Assembly: GCF_014695775.1 (NCBI RefSeq)
Contig: NZ_JACJOX010000019.1
Location: 1 to 41,575, forward strand
From: Leptolyngbya sp. FACHB-60
GTDB lineage: Bacteria > Cyanobacteriota > Cyanobacteriia > Phormidesmidales > Phormidesmidaceae
Length of the DNA: 41,575 nucleotides
Direction of reading: 5' to 3'
Part shown: piece after piece, positions 2,031 to 8,053 of the stretch
Layout: each line of letters opens with the position of its first letter
Numbering within the stretch: the stretch's first letter is position 1
Notes under the pieces: generated by a model
Seen by the model: only the letters and a program-made list of their open reading frames with translations
The model's database searches: none
Told to the model about the DNA's origin: nothing
Made by a program: the position numbers and the translations under genes

Positions 2031-2061
2031 TAAACTCATGGGAACACAAGGTGAAGAGACC

Positions 2062-3468
2062 ATGACCGTTGACTACGACGCAGTGATTCTCGGCGGCACG
2101 GTGCAGGGGCGTGAGGCCGCTGCCCTAGCGGCGCGGGAGGGCGCACGGGTAGCCCTGGTTGAGCCTCCGGGGGCAGTAGAGCAGCAGATTCGCCGGCAGA
2201 TTGTGCTTACTACCCTAGCTCAAGCTAGAGCCTCTCAGGGCCAAACCTGGGAGTCAGTGAAATCTCAGGTCAGATCGCTAGAGGCGATCGCCTACCCCCA
2301 CCTAAATCTCGATGGCCTGGCTACCAGCGGTGTGGATGTAGTGCTGGAACCCGGTCAATTTAGCCCTCGGCCGAATTTGGCGGTGACAACGTTGACGCGG
2401 CGGCTGCGATCGCGCGGCTACCTCCTCGCCCCTAGTACCGCAGCTACTGTCCCCGATATTCCTGGGCTGGCCGAGACCCCTTACCTCACCGTCGATACAC
2501 TGCTGGATTCGGCGGCATTGCCTGAGTCGGCGATCGTGCTGGGGCGGAGTGCGGTGGCGATCGCCTTGGCTCAATCCCTGGCCCAGATGAGTATTCCTAC
2601 TACTTTAGTCACCCGAGGCGATCAGCTACTCCCCATCGAAGACCCAAATATATCTGCCTTTGTGGAAGCACTGCTAGAGGCGGCAGGGGTAACCCTCAAA
2701 CTCAACACTCGATTAGACGCGATCCATTACAAAGATAGTTTTGAAGTCTCGCTGGCTGATGGCGACTTGCTTAAGGCTCAAACCCTGGTGCTGGCTACCG
2801 CTGCCCACTCCATCTTGGGGCCGCTCAACCTCGACAGCATCGGCATTCACCCCCAAATAGTTCATGGCGTTGCCACCGGTCTGCCAGTGAACGATCGCCT
2901 CGCCACCCCCCATCCCCGAGTGTTTGCCTGCGGCCCGGCCCTGGGTGGCTACTGGGCCGAATCAACCGATCGCCAGGAGGTGGCGATTGCCCTGCACAAT
3001 GCTCTTTATCTGCCGCTGCGAAAGGTTTCCTTTCTCAACCGTCCTGCCCTACTCCACACCAGGCCAGAATACGCGCGGATCGGACTCACCGCTGACCAAG
3101 CCCGTCGCTGGTACGGCAGCGAAGCGACTGTGGTGCAGGTAGCGTTTGGCCAAATTCTTAAAGCCCATTACGGTAGCGAGACCACGGGCTTTTGCCGGTG
3201 GATAGTGCGGGCCGACGGGCAGCTGCTCGGTGCCCAAATTTGTGGCCCTGGAGCCAGCGAACTTATGCACACCATAGCGCTGGCGGTACACCAGGAAATT
3301 CCCCTCCAACGCCTTGACCAGGTGCCAACGTTATCCCATAGCCAGGCGGAGATCATTCCCCTGATGGTGAGTGAGTGGCAGCGGCAGCGCTGGCAGCACG
3401 GCACCTGGCGGCGCGACTGGGCCGAGAACTGGTTTAACTGGCGGCGAACTCGGCGGCGACTAGGATAA
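2062..3468 (+). CDS. FAD/NAD(P)-dependent oxidoreductase, disulfide-reductase-like but lacking the redox CxxxxC
   Basis: The protein has the two-dinucleotide-fold plan of the lipoamide dehydrogenase/mercuric reductase superfamily. An FAD-binding strand-loop-helix is at its N terminus (DAVILGGTVQGREAA), an NAD(P)-type fold in the middle (IVLGRSAVAIALAQSL), an FAD motif with RVFACGPALGGY, and a C-terminal dimerisation domain ending in a VPTLSHSQAEII segment. The redox-active CxxxxC that normally follows the first beta-alpha-beta unit is absent; the stretch after EPPGA reads VEQQIRRQIV. It is therefore unlikely to be a classical disulfide reductase, and the substrate is unknown. An upstream in-frame ATG exists at 2038. 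I prefer 2062 because AAGGTGAAGAG sits just before it and because the family starts close to the FAD strand. Confidence 0.8.
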   Translation: MTVDYDAVILGGTVQGREAAALAAREGARVALVEPPGAVEQQIRRQIVLTTLAQARASQGQTWESVKSQVRSLEAIAYPHLNLDGLATSGVDVVLEPGQFSPRPNLAVTTLTRRLRSRGYLLAPSTAATVPDIPGLAETPYLTVDTLLDSAALPESAIVLGRSAVAIALAQSLAQMSIPTTLVTRGDQLLPIEDPNISAFVEALLEAAGVTLKLNTRLDAIHYKDSFEVSLADGDLLKAQTLVLATAAHSILGPLNLDSIGIHPQIVHGVATGLPVNDRLATPHPRVFACGPALGGYWAESTDRQEVAIALHNALYLPLRKVSFLNRPALLHTRPEYARIGLTADQARRWYGSEATVVQVAFGQILKAHYGSETTGFCRWIVRADGQLLGAQICGPGASELMHTIALAVHQEIPLQRLDQVPTLSHSQAEIIPLMVSEWQRQRWQHGTWRRDWAENWFNWRRTRRRLG

Positions 3469-3488
3469 GTCAAACTAATTTGTCGCCT

Positions 3489-3511
3489 CTCAGATGTACT
3501 GAGTTTATAGT
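3489..3511 (+). promoter_or_regulatory. Candidate promoter with CTCAG-N5-CTGAG dyad upstream of the CHAT/sigma cassette
   Basis: A perfect five-base inverted repeat, CTCAG (3489-3493) and CTGAG (3499-3503), lies two bases before a TATAGT hexamer (3506-3511) that resembles a -10 box. The coding start is at 3550. No convincing -35 hexamer stands at the usual distance (TTGTCG at 3480 is 20 bases away), which fits an operator-controlled or alternative-sigma promoter. This is an inference from pattern only. Confidence 0.3.
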
Positions 3512-3549
3512 TAAGAAAAATTTGCTCTACCCCAGGCTCAGATCATGTT

Positions 3550-4908
3550 ATGCAAAAAAAGATTTTGTTCTTAGCGGCTAACACCGCAAATGACACCCGC
3601 CAACGCTTAGACGCAGAACTACGTGATATCGAAGAGGGACTGAGACGCTCACAACATCGCGATCAATTTACCTTGATCCAGAGGCTAGCAGTGCGGCCAC
3701 GTGACATTCAGAGGGCTATGCTAGAAGAAACACCACAAATCGTACATTTTTCTGGTTACAGAGAAGGGTTAGAAGGTTTAGTGTTTAAGGATGAAAACGG
3801 TAAGGCTAGTTTAGTATCTGAAAAAGCTCTAGAGGGGCTGTTCGAACTATTTTCAAACCCAGCAGAATTCACCGATCCAGTAAATTGTGTAGTACTCAAT
3901 GGTTGCTACTCTCAGATACAGGCAGAAGCCATTGCCAAACATGTTCCCTACGTAGTAGGTATGACCAAAACGTTTGAAGGTCACACTGCTATTGAATTTG
4001 CAGTGGGGTTCTATGATGCTTTAGGGGCAGGGCGGTCGGTGGAGTTTGCATATAAAGTAGGCTGCACGGCAGTTCAGCTATCCGGAAATGAGCAAGCTCT
4101 CCCAATAATGATTGATAGCACAGCACCTAAAGCTATGCTTCAAAGAAGGCAGCTGGCTAATCGAACAAAAGAGATAGAACAATTCTATCGAATGGTAAAC
4201 CGAGAGTGTTTTCAACGCATTCTTCTGGTCGAAGCCCCATCGGGCTACGGTAAAACGTCGTTGCTAATGCGTTTTGAAGCTGAATGTCCAAGAACCTTAA
4301 AGTCAGCTTGGGTGGACCTGAAAGCTGCAAAAACGGGTGCGCCTTACCTCTTTTCCCGTATTCGAGAAAAGTTAGGAGTTAGACAATTACCTAACTTTGA
4401 TCAAATGATCGAGGAATTTGTGGATGCAAGATTAGGGATTAAAAATAGAGGCGAAAAGAGTCAAGAGAATCAGATTAAAACAATTTTAAACATCCAAGAC
4501 GAAGACTCAAGAAGTTTTGTATTGACTGAGCTAGGAAAAGCTTTTTTTACAGATTTATCAAACATGCCTTGCTCGATTTTAATAATCTTAGACACATTTA
4601 ACGCTGCACCTGAAACCTTAGCCAATTGGATCGCTGGAGGTTTCTTAGCAGAAGTAGCTGACTCTGAAAATGTGCTTGTAATTTTAGCAGGTCAAAAAGT
4701 GCCTGAACCTAGCGGTGAGTGGAAACGTTTTCATCAACATTGTAGACTTGATAGCATCTTAGAAGTTGATGCTTGGCAAGACTATGCCCAAGATATAGGA
4801 TTATCCTTTAATCGGGATGAAATCCGTACAGCAATTCGCATCCTTAAAGGACAACCCTCAGAGATTGTTAAAGCTTTTGATGTGATGGCTAAGGATGTAG
4901 AAGCATGA
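3550..4908 (+). CDS. CHAT-domain protein fused to a P-loop (STAND/AAA-like) NTPase, CHAT dyad degenerate
   Basis: A 452-residue signalling protein. Residues 1-180 match the CHAT (caspase-like) domain type often found at the N terminus of cyanobacterial NTPase sensors (KKILFLAAN start, LRDIEEGLRRS, AVRPRDIQRAML, EFAVGFYDALGAGRSVEFAY). The catalytic Cys position is kept (VVLNGCYS, C119). The usual SGHGEG, which supplies the His, reads SGYREG, so Tyr70 replaces His. Residues about 200-450 form an NTPase: Walker A EAPSGYGKTS at 228-237 and a Walker B-like ILIILDTF at 343-350. It has no winged helix or sensor repeats of its own; those occur in the next gene, whose ATG overlaps this stop (ATGA). 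GC content is far below the flanks. The protease may be inactive and serve as a binding module. Confidence 0.85.
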   Translation: MQKKILFLAANTANDTRQRLDAELRDIEEGLRRSQHRDQFTLIQRLAVRPRDIQRAMLEETPQIVHFSGYREGLEGLVFKDENGKASLVSEKALEGLFELFSNPAEFTDPVNCVVLNGCYSQIQAEAIAKHVPYVVGMTKTFEGHTAIEFAVGFYDALGAGRSVEFAYKVGCTAVQLSGNEQALPIMIDSTAPKAMLQRRQLANRTKEIEQFYRMVNRECFQRILLVEAPSGYGKTSLLMRFEAECPRTLKSAWVDLKAAKTGAPYLFSRIREKLGVRQLPNFDQMIEEFVDARLGIKNRGEKSQENQIKTILNIQDEDSRSFVLTELGKAFFTDLSNMPCSILIILDTFNAAPETLANWIAGGFLAEVADSENVLVILAGQKVPEPSGEWKRFHQHCRLDSILEVDAWQDYAQDIGLSFNRDEIRTAIRILKGQPSEIVKAFDVMAKDVEA

Positions 4909-7145
4909 ATACTGAACTTCTATATCGGTTAGGCCAAGCTCAGAGTGATGACGAGCGCACTTGGTTGGTAACAGAAAGTCTTCTAGAAACACTTTCACCA
5001 GAAATGCAGCTAGCCGTGTGGGCCGCAGCAATACCTCATTGGTTTAATAGCGATATTTTATTAGAATTGCGCCCAGAAATAGCTGGTCAAGCTGAAAATC
5101 TTTGCAACCAATTGCAAGGGTTATCTTTTATAGAATTATTTCCAGGGCGAGGTCATAATATTCATGACCTGACACGCGAGGCTATGCTTTCTAAATTATG
5201 GAAATCTAATCAAAGTGAATATCTCAAGTTGTCTATAAGGGCCGCGAATTACTTCTCGAAACAAATTGATGAATATTGTAAAATTGAGAGCATATATCAT
5301 TTGGTTGTATCTGAAAGAGATTCAGCAGATATCATAGTTTGGGACTATACCTCTAACTTGAAAAGCAATTTTCAGTATGCTGAACTTGATGCTCTTTTAG
5401 ACTTGTTGTTAGAACACGATAATAGCGATCGTTTGTCGTGCTCAGCAAAAGCAGTAACTTACTATCGGAAGGGCGAAACCCTTAATCGAACTTATAGATA
5501 TGACGCTGCTCTTGAATACTATGTTTCCTCGCTTGATCTCTTCTGCGAAGTAAGGAGCTCTTTTGGAGAGGCAAGTGTCCGAAAATCTATTGGTGATACG
5601 CTAATATTCCTAAATCAAACTAAAAATGCGTTAGAGAGCTATGAACAAGCGGCTGTGTTATTTCACCAAACAGGTGACTATTCAAAAGAAGCTGACACCT
5701 TCAGCGCCATTGGTGATGTTCTCGCATTACTAGGTAGTAGGAAAGAGGCACTGGAAAGCTATGAGCAAGCAGTTGTATTATTCCAGAGCGTAGATGATCG
5801 GTTAGGAGAAGCTAATGCTCTCACTGCAATCGGTGATCTAATGTATTCTCTTGGGCACAAAGATGTTGCATTAGTAAAGTCTCAAGAAGCTATTAGCTTA
5901 TTTGAAGCAATAGACTCTCGACTTATGGAGGCCAGTACTTTTACAACTATTGGTGATGTACTTCAATTTCTCGATAGAATAGATGAAGCATTAGAAAGTT
6001 ATGCGCAGGCCATAAAGCTTGCTCAAGCAGTTGGAGATCGTTTAGAAGAAGCTAATATTTTAAAGGCTGTTGGCAATGTATTAGGATTTCTAAATCGAAG
6101 ACATGAAGCATTAGAAAACTTCATGCATGCAATCAAGATCTTCCGTGAAGTAGGTCATCGCTTAGGTGAGGCTAATACGCTTATCTTGATTGGTGATACA
6201 TTGCATTTTTTGGACAAACAGCAAGACGCACTAACAAACTATAGGCAGGCAATTGAGATATTTCATGATTTGGGCTACCGAGTAGGGAAAGCTATCGCCC
6301 TCGCAGCTGTTGGCGATGTGCTTCAATCTTTTGATTGTGAAGATGAGGCAATAGCGCATTACGAGCAAGCGATCGAAATCTTCAACAATGAAGGTTATAC
6401 CGGGCAAGAGAGCAAAGCTCTCATGTCTATGGGTGATACATTACGTTCTCTTGGTCGAATAGATGCAGCAGCAGCAAGTTATGCGAAAGCATTTGCAATA
6501 TCAGCATCAGGTGGCGCGGAGAGACCTCTAGATGACCGACAAGCGGTACAAGATTTTAATCGTGATGTACAATTACTTCTTAAACCTAATAACCCTCATG
6601 CGCGATCATTGCTAGCGTTTATTAAGCGCACAATTCATCAGTTTGGGCTACAGGCCTATGTTACCGAAATTGATATCTTTGTTGAGGCTTACCTGCGGGG
6701 GATTCGATATACTCAGCAGAGTCCGGAAGGGATCCGACAACCTAAGGCATGGATGCGCCGCACTGCCTATAATATTATTCGTGAATTTAAACGCGACCGT
6801 TTACGATACTCAAAGGCTTCCTTCAATGAGACGATGAGTGATGATCATCCAATAAGTGAGGCTCCAGAGATTCCTGCTACAGACGATACTTTGAGTACTG
6901 CTATAAATTCGGTACTACAAGCTTTAGATACACTTTCACCAAGTGATCGTGACCTGATTCAGTGGAAAGTTGTTGAAGGATTAACATGGAACGAGGTGCA
7001 GGCCCGGCTTGTGGACAAGGGAGAAGACCGCGTTTCTCAAGCTACCCTACGTAAACGTGGTAAGCGCGCCTTAGAGCGTCTTAGAAGAGCTTATCGTAAA
7101 GCCTCTAACGGTGAATCAACTTCCCCTAGACTTCCAGAAAATTAA
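4905..7145 (+). CDS. Winged-helix-like/TPR protein with C-terminal sigma-70-type domain
   Basis: A 746-residue partner of the CHAT-NTPase. Residues 20-130 resemble the winged helix that ends a STAND NTPase module (SLLETLSPEMQLAVWAA, then IHDLTREAML). Residues about 183-540 are nine TPR units at an exact 40-residue period, marked by KGETL 189, IGDTL 229, IGDVL 269, IGDLM 309, IGDVL 349, VGNVL 389, IGDTL 429, VGDVL 469 and MGDTL 509. Residues about 560-640 read as sigma region 2 (FVEAYLRG, PKAWMRRTAYNIIREFKRDR), and 668-735 as sigma region 4 with a helix-turn-helix (LDTLSPSDRDLI, LTWNEVQARL, SQATLRKRGKRALERL). AAGGA lies nine bases before the ATG and the frame is closed 15 bases upstream, so this is a true second start. 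Likely output: transcription controlled by the upstream NTPase. No homologous function is known to me. Confidence 0.85.
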   Translation: MNTELLYRLGQAQSDDERTWLVTESLLETLSPEMQLAVWAAAIPHWFNSDILLELRPEIAGQAENLCNQLQGLSFIELFPGRGHNIHDLTREAMLSKLWKSNQSEYLKLSIRAANYFSKQIDEYCKIESIYHLVVSERDSADIIVWDYTSNLKSNFQYAELDALLDLLLEHDNSDRLSCSAKAVTYYRKGETLNRTYRYDAALEYYVSSLDLFCEVRSSFGEASVRKSIGDTLIFLNQTKNALESYEQAAVLFHQTGDYSKEADTFSAIGDVLALLGSRKEALESYEQAVVLFQSVDDRLGEANALTAIGDLMYSLGHKDVALVKSQEAISLFEAIDSRLMEASTFTTIGDVLQFLDRIDEALESYAQAIKLAQAVGDRLEEANILKAVGNVLGFLNRRHEALENFMHAIKIFREVGHRLGEANTLILIGDTLHFLDKQQDALTNYRQAIEIFHDLGYRVGKAIALAAVGDVLQSFDCEDEAIAHYEQAIEIFNNEGYTGQESKALMSMGDTLRSLGRIDAAAASYAKAFAISASGGAERPLDDRQAVQDFNRDVQLLLKPNNPHARSLLAFIKRTIHQFGLQAYVTEIDIFVEAYLRGIRYTQQSPEGIRQPKAWMRRTAYNIIREFKRDRLRYSKASFNETMSDDHPISEAPEIPATDDTLSTAINSVLQALDTLSPSDRDLIQWKVVEGLTWNEVQARLVDKGEDRVSQATLRKRGKRALERLRRAYRKASNGESTSPRLPEN

Positions 7146-7192
7146 GTCAGCCTAAAAAATTTAAATTACTGTTTTCATTCAAATAACGAGTT

Positions 7193-8053
7193 TTAGCGAA
7201 GGCTTTCGCAGGCAACGCCATCACTATCCCCATCCAGACTGTGAGGGTCACTGGGGGCGGCATTCAAAACAGCCTGAGCCTGTTCCCAGGTGGCGAAGTC
7301 GCCACAGTCGCAGTCACGAGAGGCACAGGCAGGCAGGTTGGCTGGGGTCGTTGCCGAAGGCGGGCTAACGGGAGCTGGCACAACAGCCAGGGGTGGAGCG
7401 GTTGGGGTTGGGGATGCTCCGCCCCGGCGAAAATCCCAGGGCATGGTGGGGTTGGGCTGGCTCCAAAAGTTGCGGCGGGCGTTGCGGGCGGCAGATTCCG
7501 CTTGGCGGTAGTCGTCAGCGGTGGCGGCACAGCCAGAAATGTATTGCTCATAGACAACGGCGTAGCCCTCATGCACCAGCTGTAGCCCCGCCGATTGGCC
7601 GCCGCTATAGATCTCAGCTACGGTTCTGCCGTAGCGATCGCGCTCAATCGCCCGCACCTCCACCGGCTGCCCGGTCGAAAGCAACTGCCGCAGCCGCAGC
7701 GTTGCCTCTGAGCCAAAGGCTTGACTGCTTTCAGGCGCATCTACACAGGCCAGACGAATGGTGAGCGGGCCATCCTGCCCCTGCACGCGCAGCGTATCGC
7801 CATCGCCTACAAAAACTACGGTTGCGGTGGGTAGGATTTTAGCGGCAGCTTGGTGCGCGTCTTGATCAGTGACGGCTGGTAAGGAGTTTTGCTCACTGGT
7901 TAAAGCCTCGGCAATCTCTGGCTCTCTAAATTGGGCACCAACAACCCCTGCCTGAGGCAAGGCCGAGCACCCAGAGAGCAAGATTAGCAATCCTAAACCA
8001 GACACCCCCTCAATTAGGGCCGTCACATATCGACTTCGGATTAGGGGCATCAT
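7193..8053 (-). CDS. Thermonuclease-family (SNase-like) lipoprotein with C-terminal excalibur domain
   Basis: A predicted secreted or outer-face nuclease of 286 residues. A lipobox ends the signal peptide (LLILLSGC, Cys29). The staphylococcal-nuclease fold spans about 75-195 with its active-site segments: DGDTLRV (84-90), RLACVDAPE (100-108) and [11 protein letters not shown] (137-147), which hold the Arg, Asp and Glu residues used for calcium-dependent phosphodiester cleavage. A Pro/Ala-rich linker (about 210-240) leads to an excalibur calcium-binding motif ([24 protein letters not shown]) at the very end. It converges with the sigma-domain gene, with only 47 bases between stops and no clear terminator there. 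It returns to the GC-rich composition of the chromosome. Confidence 0.88.

What the first reader, a model, noticed from the sequence alone, without database searches (positions are those of the whole stretch)
3550..7145. Two-gene CHAT-NTPase / TPR-sigma cassette: a possible undescribed signalling or defence system
Seen: CHAT domain plus P-loop NTPase in one protein, then a start-stop-coupled protein with winged-helix-like, nine TPR units and a sigma-70-like region 2 and 4. Known: type III-E CRISPR loci pair a TPR-CHAT protease (Csx29) with an RpoE-like sigma factor, where proteolysis controls transcription; CHAT-NTPase fusions occur widely in cyanobacterial conflict systems. Inference: here a STAND-type sensor may directly steer RNA polymerase, because the sigma domain is fused to the TPR sensor. 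No CRISPR array or cas gene is present, so it would be an independent system.
Basis: partly seen in the sequence, partly recalled or inferred. Interest (0 to 1): 0.85.

Follow-up and report, generated by a model that had tools for sequence, protein, structure and literature searches.

The report
Split NLR-like switch with sigma factor
A two-gene insert in a cyanobacterial genome encodes what are predicted to be the two halves of a sensor switch of the kind used in bacterial and plant immunity, one bearing a caspase-like domain whose predicted catalytic histidine is a tyrosine and the other ending in a sigma-factor-like domain, so it likely answers a signal by redirecting transcription rather than by cutting proteins.

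Summary
Observation confirmed: CHAT–NTPase (3550-4908) overlaps WH–nine-TPR–sigma (4905-7145) by 4 bp. NTPase and WH-TPR look like one STAND machine split over two genes: the NTPase lies directly upstream in 31 of 32 related loci. There the first gene is usually a small membrane protein (26 of 27 testable); CHAT or sigma on the two genes was seen in none, though 7 loci are cut off before the C-terminus. The sigma tail is ECF-like by sequence: 18 of 18 PDB sequences matched by its profile are sigma factors; such fusions arose at least twice. The CHAT lacks the His of the His-Cys dyad (Tyr70; Cys119 kept) in both known CHAT–NTPase–sigma versions, which speaks against a Csx29-like protease. The cassette is a precise 3.73-kb insertion: ten same-genus genomes have the empty site, two carry other genes there. 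Best reading: a MalT/NLR-like switch whose output is transcription through a fused sigma, with a non-cutting CHAT. Ligand, regulon and any defence role are untested. Sigma modules in cyanobacterial conflict systems were already predicted (Kaur 2021), hence a new variant of a known kind.

The parts
3459..7191 (.). whole cassette: 3.73-kb insertion between two genes that are neighbours in relatives
   Evidence: homology of ten empty sites stops at 3453-3468 and resumes at 7192-7194
3550..4908 (+). gene 1, CHAT–NTPase, 452 aa
3550..4113 (+). CHAT domain, aa 1-188
3757..3759 (+). Tyr70 at the position of the catalytic His
3904..3906 (+). Cys119, kept nucleophile position
4159..4905 (+). P-loop NTPase, aa 204-452
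4234..4260 (+). Walker A, aa 229-237
4579..4602 (+). Walker B, aa 344-351
4905..4908 (+). 4-bp overlap of the two genes
4905..7145 (+). gene 2, WH–TPR–sigma, 746 aa
4998..5207 (+). winged-helix-like core, aa 32-101, inside the conserved N-terminal domain (aa 1-178)
5439..6506 (+). nine TPR helix pairs, aa 179-534
6534..6833 (+). sigma2-like helices, aa 544-643
6882..7106 (+). sigma4-like helices, aa 660-734
2038..3468 (+). left flanking gene, pyridine nucleotide-disulphide oxidoreductase
7193..8053 (-). right flanking gene, SNase-domain protein

Best explanation
The cassette likely encodes a STAND (NLR/MalT-like) switch split over two overlapping genes, CHAT–NTPase and WH–TPR–sigma, whose products would assemble into one ATP-driven complex that senses a still unknown ligand and would pass the signal to RNA polymerase through the fused sigma domain, with the CHAT domain predicted to serve as a non-cutting scaffold or lid. 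Shown: the domains, the overlap, the conserved NTPase/WH-TPR pairing, the sigma homology, the missing His, the precise insertion. Inferred: that the two proteins bind each other (the WH that a STAND NTPase needs lies on the partner); that resting WH-TPR packing hides sigma and that ligand plus ATP exposes it; that sigma binds core RNA polymerase and a promoter set. CHAT probably holds the slot that a small membrane protein has in most relatives; in the sigma-bearing version it would have exchanged killing or anchoring for regulation. Whether the trigger is a phage is open.
Confidence: 0.5

Rival explanations
1. The sigma tail is an integrated decoy: a copy of a host sigma factor at the sensor end, which phage anti-sigma or polymerase-seizing proteins bind, so that the STAND is triggered; the output is then made by the first-slot protein.
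For: The tail is at the end where STANDs usually sense; its nearest relatives are stand-alone sigmas of the same family of genomes (39 of 63 genomes hold the family; window tail 73% to P0257); fused at least twice; fused tails carry more changes; in the Calothrix version a membrane protein, a candidate effector, precedes the NTPase.
Against: In the window the candidate effector CHAT lacks its His, so a decoy would have no obvious killer; sigma2 and most near-invariant positions are kept; no phage partner known.
Confidence: 0.15
2. Csx29-like release: an active CHAT protease cuts its partner or an inhibitor and so frees the sigma domain.
For: CHAT and ECF sigma work together in Craspase (PMC10028731, passages); Cys119 is kept in the window and P0122; residues 644-659 and 537-541 are low-confidence, possible cut sites.
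Against: The His of the dyad is Tyr in both versions; in Csx29 the H615A/C658A double change abolished cleavage.
Confidence: 0.12
3. A regulator without polymerase function: the sigma-like tail is only a DNA- or protein-binding adaptor, and the system is an ordinary stress regulator or is decaying.
For: Single-sequence sigma scores are below curated cutoffs; recognition-helix changes in P0002 and in the TRADD-N copy of this genome; rarity.
Against: Both ORFs are intact; CHAT, NTPase and sigma2 are 69-75% identical between the two versions while linkers are 6-20%, which fits constraint; mobile insertion.
Confidence: 0.18

Closest known systems
MalT-type STAND transcription regulators (MalT, AfsR)
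   Different: split over two genes, a sigma2-sigma4 pair instead of a DNA-binding HTH, and a CHAT domain in front
EAD/TRADD-N/EACC2 conflict systems with ECF-like sigma (Kaur et al. 2021, PMC8195603; passages read)
   Same: ECF-like sigma as predicted output beside caspase and TPR proteins; the same sigma family is fused to TRADD-N in this genome and in two relatives
   Different: no TRADD-N, EACC2 or EAD-like tail found in the cassette; sigma is fused to the TPR half of a split STAND
Type III-E CRISPR Craspase (Csx29/Csx30/CASP-sigma; PMC10028731, passages read)
   Same: CHAT, TPR and ECF sigma parts together
   Different: Csx29 has a working His-Cys pair (H615/C658) and cuts a separate inhibitor; here no CRISPR array, no His, and sigma is covalently attached to the TPRs
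ECF42 sigma factors with TPR extension (PMC8999054, passages read)
   Same: sigma and TPR in one chain, TPR thought to control sigma
   Different: ECF42 has sigma first and about 200 residues of TPR behind; here WH and nine TPRs precede sigma, with an NTPase partner
ECF54 sigmas and the anti-sigma factor DdvA
   Different: DdvA is a transmembrane anti-sigma factor (entry title); here CHAT is fused to an NTPase and no transmembrane part was seen
Avs and plant NLR immune STANDs
   Same: Foldseek matches of the gene 1 model to RPP1 and to Avs3/Avs4; effector–NTPase–WH–repeat order (recalled)
   Different: single chains with C-terminal sensors and other effectors; no sigma

Membership tests
STAND NTPase switch (MalT/NLR class) | P-loop NTPase with Walker A and B | tested here: met
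   aa 229-237 and 344-351
STAND NTPase switch (MalT/NLR class) | NTPase fold of the STAND clade rather than other AAA+ | tested here: inconclusive
STAND NTPase switch (MalT/NLR class) | winged helix and repeat sensor after the NTPase | tested here: met
   on the adjacent overlapping gene; pairing in 31 of 32 loci; WH assigned from predicted secondary structure only
STAND NTPase switch (MalT/NLR class) | ligand- and ATP-driven oligomerisation | not testable with these tools
   needs biochemistry
ECF-type sigma factor | sequence relation over sigma2 and sigma4 | tested here: met
   single sequence below NCBIfam/Pfam cutoffs
ECF-type sigma factor | sigma2/sigma4 fold by structural comparison | tested here: inconclusive
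   helices as expected, but the fold search barely covers residues beyond 538
ECF-type sigma factor | binds core RNA polymerase and starts transcription | not testable with these tools
   none
active CHAT/caspase-like protease | catalytic His-Cys dyad | tested here: not met
   Cys119 present, His replaced by Tyr70
type III-E Craspase | CRISPR array beside the genes | tested here: not met
   six direct-repeat families in the window, none CRISPR-like: an 8-bp tandem repeat, pentapeptide-gene repeats and two-copy pairs
type III-E Craspase | gRAMP/Cas7-11 gene | not tested
   no cas-specific search was run
EAD/TRADD-N systems | TRADD-N, EACC2 or EAD domain in the system | tested here: not met
   Pfam scan of both cassette proteins at E<=1 lists no EAD or TRADD-N model; EACC2 not tested as such
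known anti-phage system of PADLOC-DB 2.0.0 | match to system-specific models | tested here: not met
   cassette proteins match only generic chat, SAVED_CHAT and TPR models and a TPR protein model C3a198
ECF42 | sigma N-terminal, TPR extension C-terminal | tested here: not met
   the order is reversed

The most novel reading that the evidence does not exclude
A bacterial immune receptor with an integrated decoy: a copy of a host sigma factor, fused to the sensor end of a split STAND at least twice, is bait for phage proteins that seize sigma or RNA polymerase, the bacterial counterpart of plant NLRs with built-in transcription-factor decoys.
Probability: 0.15. Interest if true: 0.92.

Novelty: new variant of a known kind. 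Interest (0 to 1): 0.64.

Why it matters
STAND receptors are known to kill cells or, in MalT, to act on promoters through an HTH (recalled). A STAND that carries its own sigma factor would couple sensing to promoter choice with no intermediate, and its pairing with a CHAT domain that lacks the catalytic His suggests that killing was exchanged for transcription. The versions seen here (membrane protein, intact CHAT or Tyr-CHAT in the first slot; nothing, PadR or sigma at the end) make that exchange testable. It also brings out a three-gene family (membrane protein, NTPase, WH-TPR) whose NTPase has no PADLOC match in the two members scanned (P0126, P0171).

Tried and rejected
Csx29-like protease release: weakened by the missing His. 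A shared autoregulatory promoter: the block conserved upstream of 16 sigma loci (two of them TRADD-N fusions) and own copy C15b matches only once in the genome with up to 3 mismatches, upstream of C15b, not at the cassette. A leader element TCTACC-CAG…TTATGC at 3526-3553 has no match in 100 shuffles, but I wrote that pattern after seeing the sequence, so it is not evidence. Fold search of the whole second protein returned TPR proteins and says nothing of sigma. The sigma-70 promoter scan was at chance (9 against 7.6). Papers: ten searches listed no paper whose title or abstract start describes this CHAT–NTPase/TPR–sigma pair; the library lacks most subscription journals.

Own errors: alignment A3 holds one wrong row (L011:9686-10306, the TRADD-N/EAD end of a 447-aa protein, not its sigma part). 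It was used; its hit C15:29677-30261 is an artefact. I rebuilt it as A8 without this row and without the distant L013 row, and repeated the PDB and hhalign tests: same outcome, weaker best E-value (SigW 2.8e-4 instead of 2.1e-5). The local sigma HMM never held that row. The genome counts 11 of 244 and 39 of 63 still rest on A3; the weak hits include what look like ordinary ECF sigmas. In one search the script picked the NACHT neighbour instead of the C17 CHAT gene; one search gives the right one. In one search only 3 of 20 listed reference CHAT proteins carried the motif used and were aligned, so the claim on G266 rests on those three.
Full report
WHAT IS THERE. Gene 1 (452 aa) is a CHAT domain (1-188) followed by a P-loop NTPase (204-452). 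Gene 2 (746 aa) has an N-terminal domain with a winged-helix-like core (32-101), nine TPR helix pairs (179-534) and two helical bundles, 544-643 and 660-734, around a low-confidence linker (AlphaFold, mean pLDDT 88.8; gene 1 mean 83.3, pTM 0.52).

SIGMA BY SEQUENCE. Single-sequence scores are weak (TIGR02937 38.8 of 42.9 bits; Pfam region 4 17.9 of 25.7). The family profile A8 (30 sequences) matches 18 distinct PDB sequences at E<=1 and all 18 are sigma factors, best E 2.8e-4. Profile-profile comparison with six ECF-like sigmas from cyanobacterial loci (A6) gives 98.5%, E 1.5e-15, while three unrelated alignments give at most 0.6%. The aligned part runs from region 2.2 to region 4 (region names recalled). 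The window keeps 73 of 80 positions that are at least 95% conserved in 46 relatives, P0002 63 of 80, one of its misses being an end that I had trimmed. A structural test of the sigma fold was not achieved.

ONE STAND OVER TWO GENES. With the N-terminal domain of gene 2 as query, 32 loci were found in genome contigs. In 31 of 32 an NTPase of gene 1 type lies directly upstream, within 14 bp in 26; L020, L025 and L028 hold only NTPase fragments and L046 none. L031 and L036 share an identical match under two organism names, so at most 31 loci are independent. In 26 of the 27 loci with at least 300 bp upstream of the NTPase the preceding gene is a small protein with a strong hydrophobic helix (in L028 and L050 it lies about 160 bp away, and L028's looks unlike the rest); by eye most carry a repetitive tail of the type VSGNRMIGK. 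Sigma appears in 0 of the 32 and CHAT in 0 of the 32 on the strand examined; 7 of the 32 are cut by the contig end before the C-terminus, and L019 has a 70-aa CHAT fragment on the other strand downstream. So the conserved core is membrane protein, NTPase, WH-TPR; CHAT and sigma are plug-ins. NTPase fold comparison does not by itself separate STAND from Cdc6/Orc1 or TnsC.

THE CHAT SLOT. CHAT proteins P0169 and P0200 end in that same repetitive tail and list the same longest-contig length as the NTPases P0126 and P0129 (113590 and 2817 bases), which suggests, without proving adjacency, that CHAT takes the place of the membrane protein. Both keep His and Cys. In the window and P0122 CHAT is fused to the NTPase and the second His is Tyr. 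Of 120 CHAT rows 109 are His-His-Cys; six rows have Tyr there, five of them distinct because P0121 is the window's own protein (window, P0122, P0164, P0236, second copy of P0182); the other five rows are gapped or otherwise changed. In SAVED-CHAT the aligned residues are 355 and 402 of the construct, which with the entry's own numbering (offset 20) are H375 and C422; that these are its catalytic pair is recalled. For Csx29 the H615A/C658A change abolished cleavage (PMC10028731, passages); another TPR-CHAT uses H585/C627 (PMC9729208, passages). CHAT is nevertheless the best conserved domain between window and P0122 (75.5%; NTPase 70.7%), so it is likely kept for a non-catalytic task. Kaur 2020 reports that about 70% of caspase domains in the effector position of vWA systems are inactive (PMC7159879, passages).

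SIGMA AND CHAT MEET ELSEWHERE. In this genome the same sigma family occurs alone (208 aa) and as sigma–TRADD-N with an EAD-like tail (447 aa) in tandem. The same tail is on a CHAT protein with intact His and Cys at C17, next to a NACHT protein, and tail-only matches lie in seven further places, one of them that sigma–TRADD-N protein. Two genus genomes have the sigma–TRADD-N fusion too (L138, L142). In G266 one 1160-aa chain reads sigma, NB-ARC, CHAT (NB-ARC 45.2 of 23.5 bits, CHAT 27.1 of 24; sigma by the local HMM), with other letters at the His and Cys positions (three references). Kaur 2021 described ECF-like sigma as an effector of TRADD-N proteins and ECF sigma genes beside EACC2-caspase genes. 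Thus sigma as an output of cyanobacterial conflict systems is known as a prediction; its fusion to the TPR half of a split STAND is the new part.

TWO ORIGINS. A tree of 80 sequences places the window and P0002 tails among stand-alone sigmas of this family and the Calothrix tail (P0015, L015) with a different one (L059); in 0% of 200 bootstrap trees do the three form one group (long branches are flagged there). PadR at the same place in P0020 and P0023 shows that the C-terminal slot receives transcription modules; P0038 has a glycosyltransferase there, which may be a chance fusion.

MOBILITY. The flanking genes are neighbours 9-494 bp apart in 10 of 25 other genus genomes; in 2 (G263, G271) the site holds other genes, in G263 a Mrr restriction enzyme (PF04471 126 bits); in 13 the flanks were not found side by side. 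In all ten empty sites homology stops at window 3453-3468 and resumes at 7192-7194. I saw no integrase gene in the cassette; target-site duplications were looked for by eye only. The NTPase is in 5 of 63 family genomes, own included, the WH domain in 5 of 244 of a phylum sample, own included; the sigma family is in 39 of 63 family genomes.

MECHANISM. MalT couples NTPase, WH and repeats to a DNA-binding tail (recalled); here the tail is a sigma pair. The most economical model: at rest the WH-TPR body hides sigma; ligand and ATP open and multimerise the complex; sigma then engages polymerase. CHAT would be a scaffold or lid; DdvA, an anti-sigma factor, carries a domain of the same fold. This is inference. 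The main rival is the decoy model, since the C-terminus is the usual sensor end. Conservation of sigma2 does not decide between them. Changes in the recognition helix of P0002 (R716L, R721L in window numbering) and of the TRADD-N copy in this genome (R716H, K717T, R718W) may mean altered or lost promoter binding in those copies; the window copy lacks these changes.

ORGANISM. The assembly is listed at 100% completeness and 5.48% contamination.

Noticed in passing
L011 8519-11026 (own genome, C15): Tandem sigma-like genes: 208 aa alone and 447 aa sigma–TRADD-N with an EAD-like tail; the recognition helix of the second is changed.
   Followed up: partly
L157 3480-6959 (genome G266): One 1160-aa protein with sigma, NB-ARC STAND and a degenerate CHAT.
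   Followed up: partly
L068 808-1971 (genome G167): PIN domain (PF13470 31.7 of 27 bits) fused to a relative of the same sigma family.
   Followed up: no
L144-L156, L012 8377-9935: A second stand-alone sigma subfamily (about 220-230 aa) often lies next to a divergently read small gene with a motif like YCQLSVQP; possibly its regulator.
   Followed up: no
upstream of sigma in L056, L128-L142: Strongly conserved promoter-like block AAACTTGATnCnGnTACATTAGAACTTAA before the stand-alone sigma orthologues; one copy in the genome with up to 3 mismatches.
   Followed up: partly
L015-L055, upstream of the NTPase: Family of small proteins with one or more hydrophobic helices and a repetitive glycine/asparagine tail shared with some CHAT proteins; no Pfam match for the two scanned.
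   Followed up: partly
L103, L104: The insertion site of the cassette holds other genes in two relatives (Mrr enzyme plus a 264-aa protein; DUF1295 protein plus a 335-aa protein without Pfam match): a small integration hotspot.
   Followed up: partly
L118-L127 (own genome): An EAD-like tail recurs on CHAT, Roc-COR, trypsin–EAD1, NACHT, NB-ARC and TRADD-N–sugar transferase proteins of this genome.
   Followed up: partly
window 3526-3553: Leader sequence before gene 1 resembles the leader of stand-alone sigma orthologues; pattern written after the fact.
   Followed up: partly
L019 8247-8456 (-): A 70-aa CHAT fragment lies downstream of an NTPase/WH-TPR pair that has the membrane protein in front.
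   Followed up: no
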